The position numbers were made by a program, and so were the translations under genes. Below are positions 39,681 through 56,698 of a DNA stretch of 64,000 nt, one piece after another (position 1 is the stretch's first letter; each line of letters starts with the position of its first letter). The DNA is from Acidobacteriaceae bacterium (GTDB lineage Bacteria; Acidobacteriota; Terriglobia; Terriglobales; Acidobacteriaceae): contig DASZBM010000002.1 of assembly GCA_035944135.1 (NCBI GenBank), positions 434,001-498,000 of the forward strand. Direction: 5' to 3'. Under the pieces are notes generated by a model. It made no database searches and was not told the origin of the DNA. It worked only from the letters and a program-made list of their open reading frames with translations.

Positions 39681-39954
39681 ACTGACTCCGGGACTTGAGA
39701 TCGCGGCGTAAGCGCAGTTCTCGGATATTGCCCGGAGGGAAACCCTGGCCCGAACCAACTGAGAATGCGTGTGAGTCGCACGGCGATTGTTCATGTATCG
39801 CGACGCGTAAAGCAACGAATCATTGGTAACGGCGGCAAGTTACGTGCAAGAGTTTGCGGAGAGCTGTCACATAGCGGTTCCACTTCGACGAGCGGGCCGT
39901 GTCCCTCGAAGGAGCAGAGGCAGATAGCTGCTCGCCTGCGCAGAGTGGTGACGG
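39681..39954 (+). other. Intergenic stretch upstream of small-protein copy 1
   Basis: About 270 bp between the PEP-CTERM gene 2 start and the conserved leader of the small-protein gene. No gene recognised; probably contains the PEP-CTERM promoter. Confidence 0.4.
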
Positions 39955-40006
39955 GAGGTGGCCCCTTTTGCGCGTAGATCGCGCATTTGCTGATAAGGAG
40001 CTAATC
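39955..40006 (+). promoter_or_regulatory. Conserved leader of small-protein family, copy 1
   Basis: GAGGTGGCCCCTTTTGCGCG and the following bases down to the RBS are nearly identical to the leader at 52785-52837 and recognisable at 40990-41067. It contains the inverted repeat TGCGCG-N5-CGCGCA at 39969-39985 and the RBS AAGGAG. Conservation of non-coding bases next to diverged coding copies points to a promoter/operator or a mobile unit boundary. Confidence 0.65.
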
Positions 40007-40273
40007 ATGAATCCGGGCGAGCCAAGAACATTCGAGCAGGGCAATGGCAACGCGGTTGTGTCAGCGGTTGAGTTATGGGCGGCTCGCGACGGTATACATC
40101 TCCGTGTCGATACCACGGATGATGGTGCGCATGCCGCCACGAACGGAGCGGGCTCGGCGAGAGACCGTCGAATTCTGTTTCGGGATCTTCGGGAGATGCT
40201 GATGGCGAACGGATGTTGGGAATCTGGAGATGAAGGCGCCGAAGCTCAAACAATCGGGAAAGACGAGGATTAG
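40007..40273 (+). CDS. Small paralogous protein, copy 1 (88 aa)
   Basis: Unrecognised soluble protein. Comparison with the copies at 41068 and 52838 gives the shared core 'WEARDGIHLR(I/V)D(M/T)T', then 'GS.RDHRILF.DLRE.LM.NG.W' and an acidic end 'DED/AED'. The start ATG has RBS AAGGAG at 8 bases. Three copies conserved at protein level within 13 kb, each with the same leader, indicate a real expressed family. Possibly a small regulator or part of a repetitive element; no function is proposed. Confidence 0.7.
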   Translation: MNPGEPRTFEQGNGNAVVSAVELWAARDGIHLRVDTTDDGAHAATNGAGSARDRRILFRDLREMLMANGCWESGDEGAEAQTIGKDED

Positions 40274-40946: not shown

Positions 40947-40989
40947 TACGTGGCTTCTTGTTGGGATGTGGCGGCTCCGTGCATGAGGC

Positions 40990-41067
40990 GCAGAGTGGCC
41001 CCTTATGCATGTAAATCGCGCATTTGCTGGTGAGGGCAGTTACGAAGGATGCCAACAGGAGCTAGCC
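40990..41067 (+). promoter_or_regulatory. Conserved leader of small-protein family, copy 2
   Basis: GAGTGGCCCCTTATGCATGT-type start, then AAATCGCGCATTTGCTGGTGAGG, matches the leaders of copies 1 and 3 but with ~25 extra bases before the AGGAGCTAGCC box. The left half of the TGCGCG-N5-CGCGCA repeat is changed to TGCATG. Confidence 0.55.
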
Positions 41068-41337
41068 ATGAAACCGGACGAGCAGAAAACACTTGGGAAG
41101 AGCAATCGCGACACGTTCGTTTCAACGGTAGGGATGTGGGAGGCTCGCGACGGTATACATCTCCGCATCGACATGACAGCTACTGGTGCGCCTTCGACTG
41201 TCACAAACAGGCCGGGCTCTGTGAGAGACCATCGGATTTTGTTTTGGGATCTTCGGGAGATGCTGATGGTCAACGGATGCTGGGTGTTTGGCGCCGAAGG
41301 GGCCGGAGCTCAAGCTACCGGGAGCGCCGAGGATTAG
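41068..41337 (+). CDS. Small paralogous protein, copy 2 (89 aa)
   Basis: Second member of the small-protein family (MKPDEQKTLGKSNRD..., WEARDGIHLRIDMTATG, RDHRILFWDLREMLMVNGCW, ending GSAED). It is intact, with RBS AGGAG 8 bases before the ATG. The copy is not followed by the CCTCCCCC repeat but by a GGCACGGC palindrome 7 bp after the stop. No known domain. Confidence 0.7.
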   Translation: MKPDEQKTLGKSNRDTFVSTVGMWEARDGIHLRIDMTATGAPSTVTNRPGSVRDHRILFWDLREMLMVNGCWVFGAEGAGAQATGSAED

Positions 41338-50839: not shown

Positions 50840-51506
50840 GCGCGATGCGCCGCGAACTTGACGATAGGAATGTTGGTCTGCACAGTGCTTCGTGCCCTCC
50901 TGTTTGATCTATGCGTCGATTACTTCGGGTTTGAGCATGCAGGCGCAAGTCAAACAGAGCATTCAGTCTCTCCTTTAGACGGCGCTATTCCCTCGTCGAT
51001 AACCTTGCGGGCGGCTGTTAGAGATGAAGACTTGTTCATGCATTCAGACCGCGTTCATTTGACAGTTCCGTCATTTTCGTTGGGTAATCTGAAGGAGCCG
51101 CTTGGAAGTCTTCTATACGCATCACACGACCGATACGGTTCGATGCTGTTCAATGATCAACGGAAAATGTTCAATCAAAGCTGAGGAGAATTGCGCCGTT
51201 GCGAAACGCGACTGGCGAGTGCAATGGACTTCGCTATGCGATTCTGCTTCCCATATGCCGCCGATGCGCTGATGTCAAAGCCGCTTCTGATCCTGATTCT
51301 GATTGGCTGATATATAAGGTCGAACTGTACAGGTCTATGCATGCCCACGCACTGTACGAAGGACGTCATGTAGTCGCGGTGTTGTGTAATTGCGCCAGCC
51401 ACCGCTTTTCTTCAACAGGTAAGAGCGCTCCCAACTTCAATACTGATTGAGGGGCTTGCCATGCAGGCGTCTTATGTTCTGGTCCACTCTACCTTGCGAA
51501 CCTATG
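50840..51506 (+). other. Intergenic stretch upstream of the PKS operon
   Basis: About 670 bp with the PKS promoter at its left end. Forward open frames here (for example 51199-51450) have no RBS, no domain and ordinary non-coding composition. I see no gene. Confidence 0.5.
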
Positions 51507-51812
51507 CTTGCCTTGCATTGGGACTTGAGGCGTTGCTCGGCTTTCACGCCGCCGGTCATGGCGCTCCTTGGAGGTCATGGAGTTGATGATTGCGTGGATG
51601 CGGGTGAACTCGGACTAGTCGACGTTGGCGGCTGCATGCCGGCGGGGCATCTTGAGGATGGATTGCCTGCTGCAGAGCTTCTTGATCTGACGTAGCCCGT
51701 CGCGGAAGTCCTCGAGGGAGAAGCCGTCGTCGGTGAGGGTTTTTTTGGCGAAGGTCTCGGACATGGAGCGGTCAAGCTTTTCTTCGGCGCGCTCGAGAGG
51801 GTGGCGGTGTTG
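51507..51812 (-). pseudogene. Decayed partial copy of the 3' part of ffh
   Basis: Reads in the same order and orientation as 56727-57185 inside the intact ffh: GCTTGCCTTGCATT / AGGCGTTGCT-GGCTTT / CATGGAGTTGATGAT / GCGGGTGAACT-GGACT / GTCGACGTTGGCGGC / CATCTTGAGGATGGATTGC / TCGCGGAAGTC / GAGGGAGAAGCCGTCG / TTTTCTTCGGCGCGCTCGAG. It has several deletions (the largest removes ~150 bp near the end coding the C-terminus), point changes and in-frame stops. It is not expressed as SRP protein. See the intact gene at 56704. Confidence 0.88.
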
Positions 51813-52223
51813 TCCACTTCCAACCCGTCAGCATTCAGCTCAGATTTCTCCGCTAGCTCGGTGAAATGGCCGGTTTCTCCGATTTCCAGGACCGGAGAAT
51901 AACAGGCTTGCCGGAGCCGACAGCGGGCAGGGGCCTTTCTCGCGGCAGAACAAAATTCTGGAAGAACTGCAAATACCCGCCAATTCTGCCTTTTTGAGTA
52001 GAACCAAGGACACCCGGTTATCTGATTGGAATGGGTGGCGGGCGTTCAGTCTTTCAAACTCTCTGGAAGAAAAGTTCTACCGAGAGTTCGAATCCCCGCA
52101 TCGCATTCGAATTCTCTCCGCAGACTCGGGCCGCACCGAGAAGCCCTTGAATACGCCAAAGAGAGAACCACCGCGTCGCTAGCGGGTTTTATCCCTCTCT
52201 GAGATTCTCGACGCGGCCGCACA
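51813..52223 (+). other. Non-coding stretch between ffh remnant and tRNA-Ser terminator
   Basis: About 410 bp without a supported gene. Contains a CCGG-type imperfect hairpin near 51867-51900 and the tRNA-Ser-like fragment at 52064. A 62-codon forward frame at 51994 runs over that fragment and is not considered coding. Confidence 0.45.
52064..52097 (+). tRNA. tRNA-Ser-like 3' fragment (degenerate)
   Basis: AAAAGTTCTACCGAGAGTTC then GAATCCCC closely follows the variable arm and T-arm of the tRNA-Ser(GCU) at 52295 (AAAAGTTCTATCGGGGGTTC then GAATCCCC) but on the opposite strand. No matching 5' half is convincing. Not a functional tRNA; possibly an attachment-site or duplication scar. Confidence 0.4.
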
Positions 52224-52259
52224 TCAATAAAATCGCCCGCATGCGGGCGATTTTATTGA
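52224..52259 (-). terminator. Perfect 36-bp palindromic terminator
   Basis: Two 18-base halves, exact reverse complements: TCAATAAAATCGCCCGCA and its complement. The GC-rich core GCCCGCATGCGGGC is flanked by an A-run on one side and a T-run on the other, so it works as an intrinsic terminator in both directions. It lies 35 bp past the 3' end of tRNA-Ser(GCU). Confidence 0.9.
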
Positions 52260-52749: not shown

Positions 52750-52784
52750 CTAACCAAGCCGTGCCCTGATGATGCGTGTGGGGT

Positions 52785-52837
52785 GGAGGTGGCCCCGTTT
52801 GCGCGTAGATCGCGCATTTGCTGGTAAGGAGCTAGTC
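52785..52837 (+). promoter_or_regulatory. Conserved leader of small-protein family, copy 3
   Basis: GGAGGTGGCCCCGTTTGCGC and the following bases to AAGGAGCTAGTC match the leader of copy 1 (39955) almost base for base. The inverted repeat TGCGCG-N5-CGCGCA is at 52800-52816. Confidence 0.65.
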
Positions 52838-53107
52838 ATGAAACCGGACGACCAAAGAACATTCGGGAAGGGCAATGGCGAAGCGGTAGTGTTAGCAGTA
52901 GGGTTGTGGGCCGCTCGTGACGGTATGCTTCTCCCCATTGATATGACAGGTGACAGTGCGCATACAACTGTCACGAACAGTCCGGGCTCTGCGAGAGACC
53001 ATCGGATTCTGTTTCGGGATCTTCGGAGGGTGCTGATGGCCAACGGATTTTGGAAATTTGGTGATGAAGGCACCGAAGGTCAGGCAACTGGGGGCGACGA
53101 GGATTAG
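52838..53107 (+). CDS. Small paralogous protein, copy 3 (89 aa)
   Basis: Third member of the family: MKPDDQRTFGKGNGEAV, LWAARDGMLLPIDMTGD, RDHRILFRDLRRVLMANGFW, ending TGGDED. Intact, with RBS AAGGAG. Lies inside the interval bounded by the ffh remnant and ffh. Followed after 15 bp by CCTCCCCC repeat copy D, the same layout as copy 1. Function unknown. Confidence 0.7.
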   Translation: MKPDDQRTFGKGNGEAVVLAVGLWAARDGMLLPIDMTGDSAHTTVTNSPGSARDHRILFRDLRRVLMANGFWKFGDEGTEGQATGGDED

Positions 53108-53926: not shown

Positions 53927-55555
53927 ATGGAATATATCCGCGTCTCTAATCTGCGTAGCTTAGCCGATACTGGGAGAATTGAACTAAAACCGCTGTCGCT
54001 TCTCGTTGGTGCTAATAGCTCTGGAAAGAGCACATTTCTCCGTATTTTCCCCCTGTTGAAGCAGAGCCACGAAATCCGGAGCCTCGGCGGCCTCGTTTTG
54101 AATGAAGGGGACGTTAATTTCGGCTTCTTCAACGAGGCTCTCCGAAAGGGTGCCGAACCGCCGGAGTTAAAGTTTGAGTTTGGATTTGCGCTGGAGAAAG
54201 GCTTGTACCAAGGCGCTTCATGGAATGCCTACTTTCTCGGAACGACAGATGTCGTCTGTGAGCTGGTTTATGTGGCTCGTGAACATGACAGCCGTTACGC
54301 CCGCCTGCGTAGATTGTCCCTCACACTCAAAATGGGCGACGCAACCGATAGCGTGATTATTGAGGCAGACGAAGATGGGCTTATCTCCGAGTTCAGAGTG
54401 AATGATTTAATCGCCACGGATGAAGAGAAGGGCGCATTGAAGCTGTTGATCCGCCGTGGTTTGGTTCCGGAGTTAATCTTTGCTGCTCAGGATGATGATC
54501 TAGTAGACAGAGGTTCCAACCCATTTGATCGGCGCCTTTTGTCTGAGACGGCTAGTTCATTTCATGGCAGAACGCTCACGGAAACGAGACTTGCCACTTT
54601 TCAGGATATCCGCGTCGGCTCGCCTCAGGAAATGCTAGACATCATGCGGTCTACAGGAGCTTTTTCTTGGCGTGACCGTGCGAAGAGTTGGAATGTCTCC
54701 TCGTCGCTCTTCCAGAAAGTCCGCAATCTGATTCTGGCGAGGCGAATGAATCAGATTCTCGATTCTGTCAACGTCTACGTTGCTCAGCTCGCAAACTCGG
54801 TTTATTACTTCCAACCTGTTCGCGCTACCGCACAACGTGATTACCTGAGCCGTGATGTTTCCGTTGCGGCTGTTGACGCGAGCGGCAGTAACGTCGCAAT
54901 GGTTCTTCAGGGAATGGCTCCGAATGACCAGTTCAACTTCAGGAAATGGATGCGACAGCACCTTGGGTTTGAGGTCTTTCCGCAGATTGTCGGAGATGGC
55001 GCCCGCGTAGCGCTGCGGATGAAAGATGAGAAAACCGGAACTGAATTTAATTTAGCTGATACCGGGTTCGGTTTTTCACAGATGCTGCCATTTCTTGTGC
55101 AGCTTTGGACGCTTATTGAAGAACAACCGGGATTCAAAGCAAGGTGGATGTATCCTCCCCCTCGTCGCCGCCTCATGAGCATTCCGAGCAGCTTCATAGT
55201 TGCAATTGAGCAGCCCGAATTGCATCTTCATCCTGCTCTCCAGGCTAGTTTGGCAGATTTGATCGTGGCGGTTGTCGCGTTAGGCAGGCAGCGCGGTTTG
55301 CCAATTCGTTTCGTTTTAGAAACGCATAGTCCAACAATTGTCGAGAGGATAGGTCAGGCAATTGAGGCAAAGCTGCTCGATCCGTCCGATGCGCAAGTAA
55401 TCCTCTTTGAGATGGACCGTGACCAGCCGACAAAGAACATTTCGAAAGTCTGTACAACAGCCTTCGATTCGAGCGGTGTTCTGGTCGATTGGCCGTTCGG
55501 CTTTTTTTCGGCACCATTGTTGCTGCCTCCACAGGGAGGTTCGGGAGCCGAATAG
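53927..55555 (+). CDS. AAA ATPase with DUF3696-like C-terminus (defence-type)
   Basis: 542-aa SMC/OLD-type ATPase. The Walker A is GANSSGKST (residues 28-36) after the typical 'I.V.NLRSL...ELKPLSLLVG' start. The Walker B region is IVAIEQPELHLHP with catalytic Glu428, and the switch/H motif is RFVLETHSPTIVERIG. The end SSGVLVDWPFGFFS is like the 'D.DG...WP.GFF' of DUF3696. The gene is more A/T-rich than its neighbours, suggesting transfer. The next gene starts directly after its stop. ATPases of this build drive several anti-phage systems (OLD, Gabija, PARIS); the role here is inferred. Confidence 0.85.
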   Translation: MEYIRVSNLRSLADTGRIELKPLSLLVGANSSGKSTFLRIFPLLKQSHEIRSLGGLVLNEGDVNFGFFNEALRKGAEPPELKFEFGFALEKGLYQGASWNAYFLGTTDVVCELVYVAREHDSRYARLRRLSLTLKMGDATDSVIIEADEDGLISEFRVNDLIATDEEKGALKLLIRRGLVPELIFAAQDDDLVDRGSNPFDRRLLSETASSFHGRTLTETRLATFQDIRVGSPQEMLDIMRSTGAFSWRDRAKSWNVSSSLFQKVRNLILARRMNQILDSVNVYVAQLANSVYYFQPVRATAQRDYLSRDVSVAAVDASGSNVAMVLQGMAPNDQFNFRKWMRQHLGFEVFPQIVGDGARVALRMKDEKTGTEFNLADTGFGFSQMLPFLVQLWTLIEEQPGFKARWMYPPPRRRLMSIPSSFIVAIEQPELHLHPALQASLADLIVAVVALGRQRGLPIRFVLETHSPTIVERIGQAIEAKLLDPSDAQVILFEMDRDQPTKNISKVCTTAFDSSGVLVDWPFGFFSAPLLLPPQGGSGAE

Positions 55556-56698
55556 ATGCTGTTTGAAATCGACGATTCTATTAGTCAGCTAATCGCGTCC
55601 GACGGGTTCTCTTCGCAAGATGAGCAATCGCTACATAACCTACTTCAATCGGTCGCGGAAGGGTCACATAGGATAACCGGTTCGCGTTCAGTTTTGCAGG
55701 CGATCGCTGGACTGGACACGTTGCGTCCACGGGAGCGGGCGGCAGCGACGCGCGCCTTGGGTAGGGTCGCCGAGGAGCGTTCTCTGGTCCGGAAACTAAC
55801 TGTAAGAGGACGCGTTGTTTCTGGCGCGAGCGTATTGCCCGTTAGCTACATTGAGCACGGTAAGAGGGTCATCCAGTTTTCACACAGATGGTTCGACGGC
55901 ATGTCGAGGATGCAGCCAACGACGGTCTTAGGCGAAAACCTCGACGATGTTAAGGTGCTGGAACTGATGTCGCGGGCTGCCATCCATATGGTAAACATCA
56001 GTTTTATGCCCTTAGCACACTTGGCTGCGCATGGCGGAGGAAGCACTATTGGTCAGGTCCTCTCGGATCTTGCGAATCAGCAGAGGATTTGCGTCTGCGT
56101 TGTGGATAGCGACAAGGCCTCGCCGGCTAGTGAACTAGGTGACACTGCTTCGACTGTGTCTAATTTCAAAGACAATGTTAGATACCCAACCATCGAAGTG
56201 ATGGAAACGATCGGGAGGGACTTAGAAAACGCATTACCTGATTCTTTCTACGACGCCCAATATTCGTCTCACTCATCTTACGCTGGTATGTCGGCGCTAC
56301 TAGCTAGTCTTAGTACTCTCGGTGAGCATGAGTTGAGGTTCCACGTCGACGTCAAGAGAGGGTTGAAGTACTGGGACTTTTTGCCGCAGAGCGGTGTTGT
56401 CGAGCACTCTTACTGGAGCGCGAAGCAAGCAACCCTCGGCGCCATTGTGAATGTTTCAGGGTCTGCGTCTTTGTGCGTTCAACAGCAGTCGTGCCCCGAA
56501 ACTTCAAAAAGACACTGTGACTGCGCAATTGTTCGCGGAATATCAGCCAATGTTCTCGAAGCTTTCATCCATGCCTCTGAGTGGAAAGATGGAAGAGTGC
56601 TCGCACGCGAATTGGACGATTCGGTTCGAGGTGAATGGTTGCGCTTGGGTATGGCCGTTGCGAGTTGGTGCTGTGCGGATCAGAAAACACGTATCTGA
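55556..56698 (+). CDS. TOPRIM-like putative nuclease partner of the AAA ATPase
   Basis: 380-aa protein not assigned to a named family. Residues ~120-190 have the TOPRIM order: TTVLGENLDDVKVLELM (Glu126, with Asp129/130), HGGGST (160-164), and a strand followed by CVVDSDKASP (Asp184, Asp186). Later segments are EVMETIGRDLENALP (214-228), which looks like the 'E.ENxLP' of OLD-type nucleases, and FHVDVKRGLKYW. The C-terminal part has CVQQQSC...HCDC, a possible metal site. The ATG is immediately after the ATPase stop (RBS GGAGG/GGGAG inside the upstream gene), so the two form a coupled operon. It ends 5 bp before the convergent ffh stop codon. Confidence 0.75.
   Translation: MLFEIDDSISQLIASDGFSSQDEQSLHNLLQSVAEGSHRITGSRSVLQAIAGLDTLRPRERAAATRALGRVAEERSLVRKLTVRGRVVSGASVLPVSYIEHGKRVIQFSHRWFDGMSRMQPTTVLGENLDDVKVLELMSRAAIHMVNISFMPLAHLAAHGGGSTIGQVLSDLANQQRICVCVVDSDKASPASELGDTASTVSNFKDNVRYPTIEVMETIGRDLENALPDSFYDAQYSSHSSYAGMSALLASLSTLGEHELRFHVDVKRGLKYWDFLPQSGVVEHSYWSAKQATLGAIVNVSGSASLCVQQQSCPETSKRHCDCAIVRGISANVLEAFIHASEWKDGRVLARELDDSVRGEWLRLGMAVASWCCADQKTRI

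What the first reader, a model, noticed from the sequence alone, without database searches (positions are those of the whole stretch)
53927..56698. Candidate two-gene defence system: DUF3696-like AAA ATPase plus an unnamed TOPRIM-like nuclease
Seen: an SMC/OLD-type ATPase (GANSSGKST; Glu428 in AIEQPELHLHP; LETHSPT) whose stop is directly followed by the ATG of a protein with TOPRIM-order acidic motifs (GENLDD, HGGGST, VVDSDK) and an ENALP motif. Known: OLD-family, Gabija (GajA) and PARIS (AriA/AriB) pair such ATPases with TOPRIM nucleases against phages. Inference: this is a split OLD/PARIS-like system in which the nuclease belongs to a family I cannot name; the Cys-rich C-terminus (CVQQQSC...HCDC) is an added element. 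The pair is A/T-richer than its surroundings and bounded by an ffh remnant.
Basis: partly seen in the sequence, partly recalled or inferred. Interest (0 to 1): 0.85.

Follow-up and report, generated by a model that had tools for sequence, protein, structure and literature searches.

The report
Split OLD-type ATPase–TOPRIM phage-defence pair
Two neighbouring bacterial genes, an ATP-driven sensor and a DNA- or RNA-cutting enzyme, form a widespread and probably anti-virus unit that databases hold at most as an untested candidate, so its trigger and its target can now be tested.

Summary
53927-55555 encodes a complete OLD/SMC-type ABC ATPase; 55556-56698 (zero gap) encodes a protein without a Pfam, NCBIfam, PHROGs or PADLOC match below E 0.1 when searched alone. 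With relatives the second protein is clear: its model (pLDDT 95.2) is matched best by OLD TOPRIM nucleases, at middling Z, and six of the seven active-site positions of a class 2 OLD nuclease are kept in 90-95 of 95 homologues. The pair is near-obligate: 112 of 113 ATPases of this branch, chosen by ATPase alone, have the partner adjacent; the exception ends at a contig end. Eight of 30 distinct viral loci carry it between gpA-like and portal/terminase genes, the P2 old/tin defence hotspot. None of 199 other related genomes has it. It is not PARIS by profile (no DUF4435), nor Gabija or Menshen by gene content. The nearest entry is PADLOC's candidate PDC-M55, whose B profile matches 19 of 32 aligned partners but not the window's own. 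Most likely: a split OLD-type anti-phage system whose ATPase senses infection and unleashes a two-metal TOPRIM nuclease. Trigger and substrate are unknown. The adjacent ffh is intact.

The parts
53927..55555 (+). OLD/SMC-type ABC ATPase, 542 aa (likely sensor and controller)
   Evidence: AAA_15 76.9 bits (cut-off 32.1) and AAA_21 64.8 bits (cut-off 27); best PADLOC hits NsnB 5.3e-39 and PDC-M55A 8.7e-30; model pLDDT 89.9, best structural matches SMC/Rad50 heads, retron Eco8 effector and GajA at Z 15-17; Walker A G28/G33/K34/S35, Q46, E428, H467 invariant in 58 of 58 aligned
55556..56698 (+). TOPRIM nuclease partner, 380 aa (likely effector)
   Evidence: Model pLDDT 95.2, pTM 0.93; structural matches OLD nuclease domains Z 8.2, 7.4, 7.0, PARIS AriB 6.0, GajA 5.8; active-site residues conserved
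55556..55909 (+). Partner N-terminal domain, about residues 1-118, fold not assigned
   Evidence: Confidently modelled; the structural matches listed span mainly 119-375; not folded or searched alone
55910..56458 (+). Partner TOPRIM core with residues E127, D131, D184, D186, E224, K267
   Evidence: Strands 122-126, 155-159, 179-183, 213-217; positions counted; BpOLD equivalents from passages of PMC6755086, matched by order and spacing, not by superposition
56474..56524 (+). Four-cysteine cluster C307/C313/C321/C323, possible zinc knuckle
   Evidence: Cys at each position in 51-58 of 95 aligned partners; at least 3 Cys in the stretch in 56 of 95

Best explanation
The two genes are a self-contained, mobile anti-phage (anti-mobile-element) system. 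SHOWN by sequence and models: gene 1 is a complete OLD-type ABC ATPase by motif; gene 2 is a TOPRIM protein that keeps six of the seven active-site positions of a two-metal OLD nuclease; the two genes travel and evolve together. INFERRED: the ATPase assembles into an oligomer that binds the nuclease and keeps it off; an infection cue (a phage protein or unusual DNA) changes the ATPase's nucleotide state; the nuclease is activated or released, its two metals (metal A: E127, D184, D186; metal B: D131, E224; K267 near the scissile phosphate) cut nucleic acid, and phage production in the infected cell stops. Whether the target is DNA (as for OLD nucleases) or tRNA (as for PARIS AriB) is open.
For: Pairing: 33 of 33 viral-contig and 79 of 80 genome ATPases of this branch (chosen by ATPase alone; a few are near-duplicates) have the partner adjacent; only 1 of 25 viral ATPases of the other, DUF3696-type branch do. 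Co-inheritance: ATPase and partner tree distances correlate r = 0.80 over 107 pairs, none of 2000 permutations reaches it, best 0.23. TOPRIM fold. Active site. Defence setting: 8 of 30 distinct viral loci have gpA-like genes on one side and portal/terminase genes on the other, the locus that holds old and tin in P2 and that PMC9122126 describes as an anti-phage hotspot (passages); restriction-modification genes within about 8 kb on the Exiguobacterium and Lacticaseibacillus plasmids. Sporadic: none of 199 other relatives, 2 clear carriers, the window's genome included, in 396 genomes of the phylum (a third match is E 2e-4 over 45 positions). Mobility within the lineage: the closest relative (60% identical ATPase, L073) lies after glmS on a contig whose glmS is 79-83% identical to full-length copies in this genus, while here the pair lies beside ffh.
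Against: No experiment shows defence. Direct neighbours in the genome loci are mostly ordinary and varied: of 132 neighbours from 75 loci, the commonest PADLOC hit is mad3 in 4, and nearly all other families shown hit 2 each, mainly methyltransferases (25 of 91 families shown); Pfam lists xseA, mnmG, tRNA synthetase, L9 and others in 2-3 each (25 of 106 shown); no control set was scanned. Structural Z values for the partner (6-8) are in the range the tool calls middling, an unrelated designed Rossmann fold reaches 6.1, and Foldseek itself gave no match below E 0.01. The sequestration step is borrowed from PARIS; the complex was not modelled.
Confidence: 0.72

Rival explanations
1. The pair works as a split DNA nuclease like class 2 OLD or GajA: the ATPase and the nuclease form a lasting complex that nicks or degrades phage DNA when nucleotide levels fall or DNA ends appear, without release of the nuclease.
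For: Active-site layout follows BpOLD, a DNA nuclease, at six of seven positions; best structural matches are OLD nuclease domains (Z 8.2, 7.4, 7.0) rather than AriB (6.0); the ATPase model resembles GajA and retron Eco8 effector heads.
Against: Z differences of 1-2 are near ties; AriB is also a two-metal TOPRIM enzyme and cuts tRNA (PMC12409363, abstract and two sections), so the site does not tell the substrate; the two proteins are separate, as in PARIS. SMC and Rad50 heads score as high as GajA for the ATPase.
Confidence: 0.4
2. The pair is a PARIS-type system in mechanism: the ATPase is an antitoxin-like cage for a tRNA-cutting TOPRIM toxin, released by a phage anti-restriction protein.
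For: Same two-gene order as AriA-AriB; AriB among structural matches (Z 6.0); the partner profile aligned to a DUF4435 protein puts the E, G and DxD motifs in register (E 0.023; the ffh control gave 0.27).
Against: No DUF4435 or AriB profile match for any member scanned; profile alignment probability only 2.1%; ATPase closer to NsnB and PDC-M55A than to AriA; the partner has an extra N-terminal domain and often a Cys cluster.
Confidence: 0.35
3. The pair is a DNA repair or housekeeping unit related to Rad50/SbcCD rather than immunity.
For: ATPase fold close to Rad50 and SMC heads; solitary placement, often next to ordinary genes.
Against: Absent from 199 other relatives; carried in viral contigs in the old/tin slot and on plasmids; different chromosomal sites in one lineage.
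Confidence: 0.07

Closest known systems
PADLOC-DB candidate PDC-M55 (A and B)
   Same: Window ATPase matches PDC-M55A at 8.7e-30; 19 of 32 aligned partners match PDC-M55B, best 2.7e-39
   Different: The window's own partner gives no PDC-M55B match even at E <= 10; the entry carries no description, and no paper in the held library contains the term PDC-M55
PARIS (AriA/AriB)
   Same: Separate OLD-type ATPase and TOPRIM nuclease genes in tandem; AriB fold match Z 6.0
   Different: No DUF4435 or AriB profile match; extra N-terminal domain and Cys cluster
Class 2 OLD nucleases and Gabija GajA
   Same: Counterparts of BpOLD E400, E404, D455, D457, E508 and K562; best structural matches
   Different: The T506 position is mostly acidic (84 of 95); ATPase and nuclease are two proteins; the next gene is ffh, not a UvrD-type helicase
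Menshen NsnB ATPase (system name recalled)
   Same: Best PADLOC hit of the ATPase, 5.3e-39
   Different: Two-gene unit without a DUF262 gene directly beside it in the window; the partner is a separate TOPRIM protein
Systems of the P2 old/tin hotspot
   Same: Eight of 30 distinct viral loci carry the pair between gpA-like and portal/terminase genes
   Different: Other genes occupy the slot in P2 itself; the window copy is chromosomal, beside ffh

Membership tests
PARIS | ATPase above AAA_15 (32) or AAA_21 (27) cut-off, the rule used in PMC9122126 | tested here: met
   76.9 and 64.8 bits; rule seen in a passage
PARIS | Partner matches DUF4435 (PF14491) or an AriB model | tested here: not met
   No DUF4435 hit for the window partner at E <= 1, for 5 members at E <= 1 or 32 members at E <= 0.1; no AriB hit for 6 members at E <= 10 or 32 at E <= 0.01
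PARIS | AriB-like fold of the partner | tested here: inconclusive
   Z 6.0 over 167 residues, rmsd 5.3, below OLD matches
PARIS | Triggered by anti-restriction proteins; tRNA cleavage | not testable with these tools
   Needs bench work
OLD nuclease (class 2) | Active site: TOPRIM Glu, Glu at +4, DxD, metal-B Glu and Lys | tested here: met
   E127 95/95, D131 acidic 95/95, D184 and D186 95/95, E224 95/95, K267 90/95 against BpOLD E400, E404, D455, D457, E508, K562; matched by order and spacing
OLD nuclease (class 2) | Thr two residues before the metal-B Glu (BpOLD T506) | tested here: not met
   Position 222 is E or D in 84 of 95, T in 1
OLD nuclease (class 2) | ATPase and TOPRIM in one polypeptide, UvrD-like gene downstream | tested here: not met
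   Two ORFs; downstream gene is ffh
Gabija | GajB UvrD-like helicase beside GajA | tested here: not met
   Genes directly beside the pair are a SCO4226-like gene and ffh
Menshen | NsnB-like ATPase | tested here: met
   NsnB 5.3e-39
Menshen | DUF262 gene beside the ATPase | tested here: not met
   Genes scanned are the partner, a SCO4226-like gene and ffh; genes further away were not scanned. DUF262 as a Menshen part is from passages of PMC10952713
PDC-M55 (PADLOC candidate) | ATPase matches PDC-M55A | tested here: met
   8.7e-30
PDC-M55 (PADLOC candidate) | Partner matches PDC-M55B | tested here: not met
   No hit at E <= 10 for the window partner, although 19 of 32 aligned partners and the L011 relative (4.7e-9) do match

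The most novel reading that the evidence does not exclude
A separate class of split OLD immune system, with its own nuclease family: a TOPRIM core framed by an unassigned N-terminal domain and a zinc-knuckle-like C-terminal cluster that may pick a specific nucleic-acid target (for example one tRNA or one DNA structure), controlled by a Menshen-type rather than AriA-type ATPase and therefore answering to a different phage cue from PARIS.
Probability: 0.4. Interest if true: 0.72.

Novelty: new variant of a known kind. Interest (0 to 1): 0.55.

Why it matters
Pairs of an OLD-type ATPase and a separate nuclease are a recurring immune design (PMC12839542, passages); among those with a separate TOPRIM nuclease, PARIS is the one I know to have a worked-out mechanism. 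This branch is widespread: record titles name Verrucomicrobia, Bacteroidetes, Cyanobacteria, Chloroflexi, Proteobacteria, Firmicutes, Spirochaetes and Acidobacteria (titles of metagenome bins can be wrong, as L073 shows). It sits in the classic old/tin slot of P2-like prophages, and its nuclease is not named by the protein-family libraries searched. A predicted active site and an alignment of 95 partners make catalytic, trigger and target experiments direct.

Tried and rejected
PARIS membership was rejected on profile grounds, not on function. Gabija, class 2 OLD and Menshen membership were rejected on gene content. A housekeeping or repair role was judged unlikely from the sporadic distribution. 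Cross-phylum transfer from Rhodanobacteraceae, suggested by the record title of L073, was dropped: that contig's glmS is 79-83% identical to full-length copies in the window's genus, so the contig is probably mis-binned.

A clean empty site was sought and not found. In five relatives nothing left of ffh matched the window from 44 kb to 56.7 kb, apart from one 42-base stretch in one of them; the ffh remnant matched only their ffh. The genes left of the island lie away from ffh in the three relatives compared (G001, G002, G010; positions). The remnant is closer to the own ffh (83%) than to the five relatives' (72-73%), so it looks like an own-lineage duplicate; how it arose is not known. The promoter scan found none (1.5 expected by shuffling) and the 3 terminator-like sites equal chance (3.2).

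Searches that led nowhere: partner in phage records, first genome-contig scan, viral scans with the partner, partner profile against PDB sequences (best E 0.019, a small hypothetical protein), BFVD fold search, PDC-M55B in 99 genomes of the phylum (2 short weak matches, none in the window's genome). The rows shown by the ATPase fold searches (50 each) did not include AriA; that is no evidence against it.

Not done: folding of the partner's N-terminal domain alone and of the complex (both prediction jobs used), a control set for the neighbour surveys, supplementary files of papers. Preprints and most subscription papers were not searchable.
Full report
WHAT IS THERE. The window carries two ORFs in the same direction: 53927-55555 (542 aa) and 55556-56698 (380 aa); the first stop codon is followed directly by the second start codon. 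They form the lowest-GC region of that length in the window (51.7% against 58.7%). On the right, five bases after the partner's stop, ends a convergent, full-length ffh gene (471 aa, SRP54 GTPase domain E 1.5e-69). On the left lie a tRNA-Ser(GCT) gene and a small SCO4226-like gene.

PROTEIN 1. It passes Pfam's cut-offs for AAA_15 and AAA_21 and has a sub-threshold DUF3696 match at its C-terminus (15.4 bits against 22). In PADLOC its best hits are NsnB (5.3e-39; I recall this as the ATPase of Menshen), PDC-M55A (8.7e-30), HEC-03B (1e-26) and AriA (1.4e-23). The model (pLDDT 89.9) matches SMC and Rad50 heads, the retron Eco8 effector and GajA at Z 15-17. Walker A G28/G33/K34/S35, Q46, D378, G380, E428 and H467 are invariant in 58 of 58 aligned relatives, and a C-terminal WPxGFF motif nearly so. 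It should bind and hydrolyse ATP (inference from the motifs).

PROTEIN 2. Searched alone it has no match with E below 0.1 in Pfam, NCBIfam, PHROGs or PADLOC. Weak tblastn hits on plasmids, widened by searching with the hits, led to Planococcus, Ruegeria, Exiguobacterium and Lacticaseibacillus, in each case directly behind a relative of protein 1. A model of the partner on 95 sequences has mean pLDDT 95.2 and pTM 0.93. Foldseek gave nothing below E 0.01 against PDB (the OLD nuclease 6p74 ranked second at 0.02), but the realigned list is headed by OLD nuclease domains (6nk8 Z 8.2, rmsd 3.5, 167 residues; 6p74 Z 7.4; 6njv Z 7.0), with PARIS AriB at 6.0, GajA at 5.8 and a small TOPRIM protein at 5.5; an unrelated designed Rossmann fold reaches 6.1. 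The Z values alone would be weak. The active site is the stronger evidence: the BpOLD paper (PMC6755086, passages) names E400, D455 and D457 at metal A, E508 with E404 and T506 at metal B, and K562. By order and spacing the partner has E127, D131 (+4, as E404), D184/D186, E224 and K267: 95, 95 (acidic), 95, 95, 95 and 90 of 95. The T506 counterpart, position 222, is not Thr but acidic in 84 of 95. E127 and D184/D186 lie just after the strands 122-126 and 179-183 of the model, as a TOPRIM requires. A cluster of four Cys (C307, C313, C321, C323) is kept in 51-58 of 95; it may bind zinc.

PAIRING. Selecting by ATPase alone, 33 of 33 viral and 79 of 80 genome members of this branch (profile score above 250 bits) have the partner next to them; the one miss, L127, ends 248 bases after the ATPase. 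A few loci are near-duplicates of each other. Three of the 79 have a short partner ORF: L138 runs off its contig, L117 stops about 100 bases from a contig end, L077 looks broken; in L075 the partner is split over two ORFs. Four plasmid loci also have it, but these were found through the partner. In the lower-scoring DUF3696-type branch the partner is present in 1 of 25 viral and 1 of 5 plasmid loci. The median gap is 0 (genomes) or -1 bases (viral). ATPase and partner trees agree (r = 0.80 over 107 pairs, 0 of 2000 permutations).

SETTING. In 30 distinct viral loci, 148 of 158 neighbouring ORFs were scanned against PHROGs: portal (phrog_68), terminase (phrog_5751) and replication-nicking (phrog_91) families each hit 8 members, phrog_2 terminase 9 (25 of 164 families shown). 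A direct tblastn with the neighbours of L021 places gpA-like genes on one side and portal/terminase on the other in L021, L024, L027, L029, L035, L038, L041 and L046, and in L028, a near-copy of L027; L032 has only a gpA-like match. That these loci are the PHROG members is inferred from the two results together. This is the locus between gpA and gpQ that PMC9122126 describes as a P2 hotspot of anti-phage systems and that holds old and tin in P2 (passages). Restriction-modification genes lie within about 8 kb on two of the four plasmids. Against this, immediate neighbours in the genome loci (132 from 75 loci) are heterogeneous and mostly ordinary (only the first 25 families of each list were shown): the pair is usually a solitary cassette, not part of a dense defence island. 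No control set was scanned, so I claim no enrichment.

MOBILITY. The partner was found in the window's genome and in none of 199 others among its relatives, and clearly in 2 of 396 genomes of the phylum, the window's included. The closest relative found (60% ATPase identity) lies directly after a glmS-like gene; its contig is titled Rhodanobacteraceae, but that gene is 79-83% identical to full-length copies in ten genomes of the window's genus and 61-65% to those of the next family, so it is most likely a mis-binned contig of the same group. In the six group genomes compared, similarity to this contig stops at the end of glmS, apart from short scattered fragments. Two close copies thus sit at different sites.

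COMPARISON. It works like PARIS and OLD systems in parts list, but formal membership fails: no DUF4435 or AriB match, two proteins instead of one and no GajB, no DUF262 gene directly beside it. The OLD-ABC plus TOPRIM dyad as a general design is in print (PMC12839542, passages). The nearest catalogue entry is PADLOC's PDC-M55: profile A matches the window ATPase (8.7e-30), profile B matches 19 of 32 aligned partners (best 2.7e-39) but not the window's partner even at E 10. So the window pair is a divergent branch of the family that PDC-M55 samples. A search of the held library for PDC-M55 found no paper, and DUF3696 with phage only an irrelevant one; a search for PARIS-like, Toprim and two-gene terms (listing of 15) showed no title that names this pair.

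MECHANISM. The shared two-metal site predicts 5'-phosphate and 3'-OH products, as shown for AriB (PMC12409363, abstract and two sections). For PARIS an ATPase hexamer holds up to three nucleases until a phage protein triggers release (PMC11455837, whole text). I propose a similar sensor-effector split here; oligomer, trigger and substrate are inferred or unknown.

VERDICT. A real, widespread, near-obligate ATPase-TOPRIM pair, very probably anti-phage, listed at most as an uncharacterised candidate. New variant of a known kind.

Noticed in passing
window 51497-51816: Decayed copy of the 3' end of ffh, same orientation as the intact gene 5 kb away (81-83% identical); the ffh of five relatives are only 72-73% identical to it, so it is probably an own-lineage duplicate of unknown origin.
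   Followed up: partly
window 52769-53107, 39953-40270, 40984-41334: Three copies of a small protein of about 112 aa (61-67% identical, one with an internal stop), the only three found in the genome and all within 14 kb.
   Followed up: partly
L073: Contig titled Rhodanobacteraceae carries a glmS-like gene 79-83% identical to full-length copies in the window's genus: probably mis-binned.
   Followed up: yes
L004 5009-8017: Exiguobacterium plasmid pEspB: the ATPase ORF is 1002 aa, with an N-terminal extension of about 440 aa that looks by eye like a plasmid replication protein.
   Followed up: no
L010 6641-7705 and L061 5702-6643: Partner homologues that follow a short DUF3696-type ATPase, so the nuclease can pair with the other ATPase branch.
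   Followed up: no
L007, L008, L009: Aeromonas, Rhodococcus and Azotobacter plasmids share a triad of DUF3696 ATPase, hypothetical protein and RNA ligase family protein, perhaps another defence-like unit.
   Followed up: no
window 52224-52259: A perfect 36-base palindrome beside the tRNA-Ser(GCT) gene, possibly its terminator.
   Followed up: no
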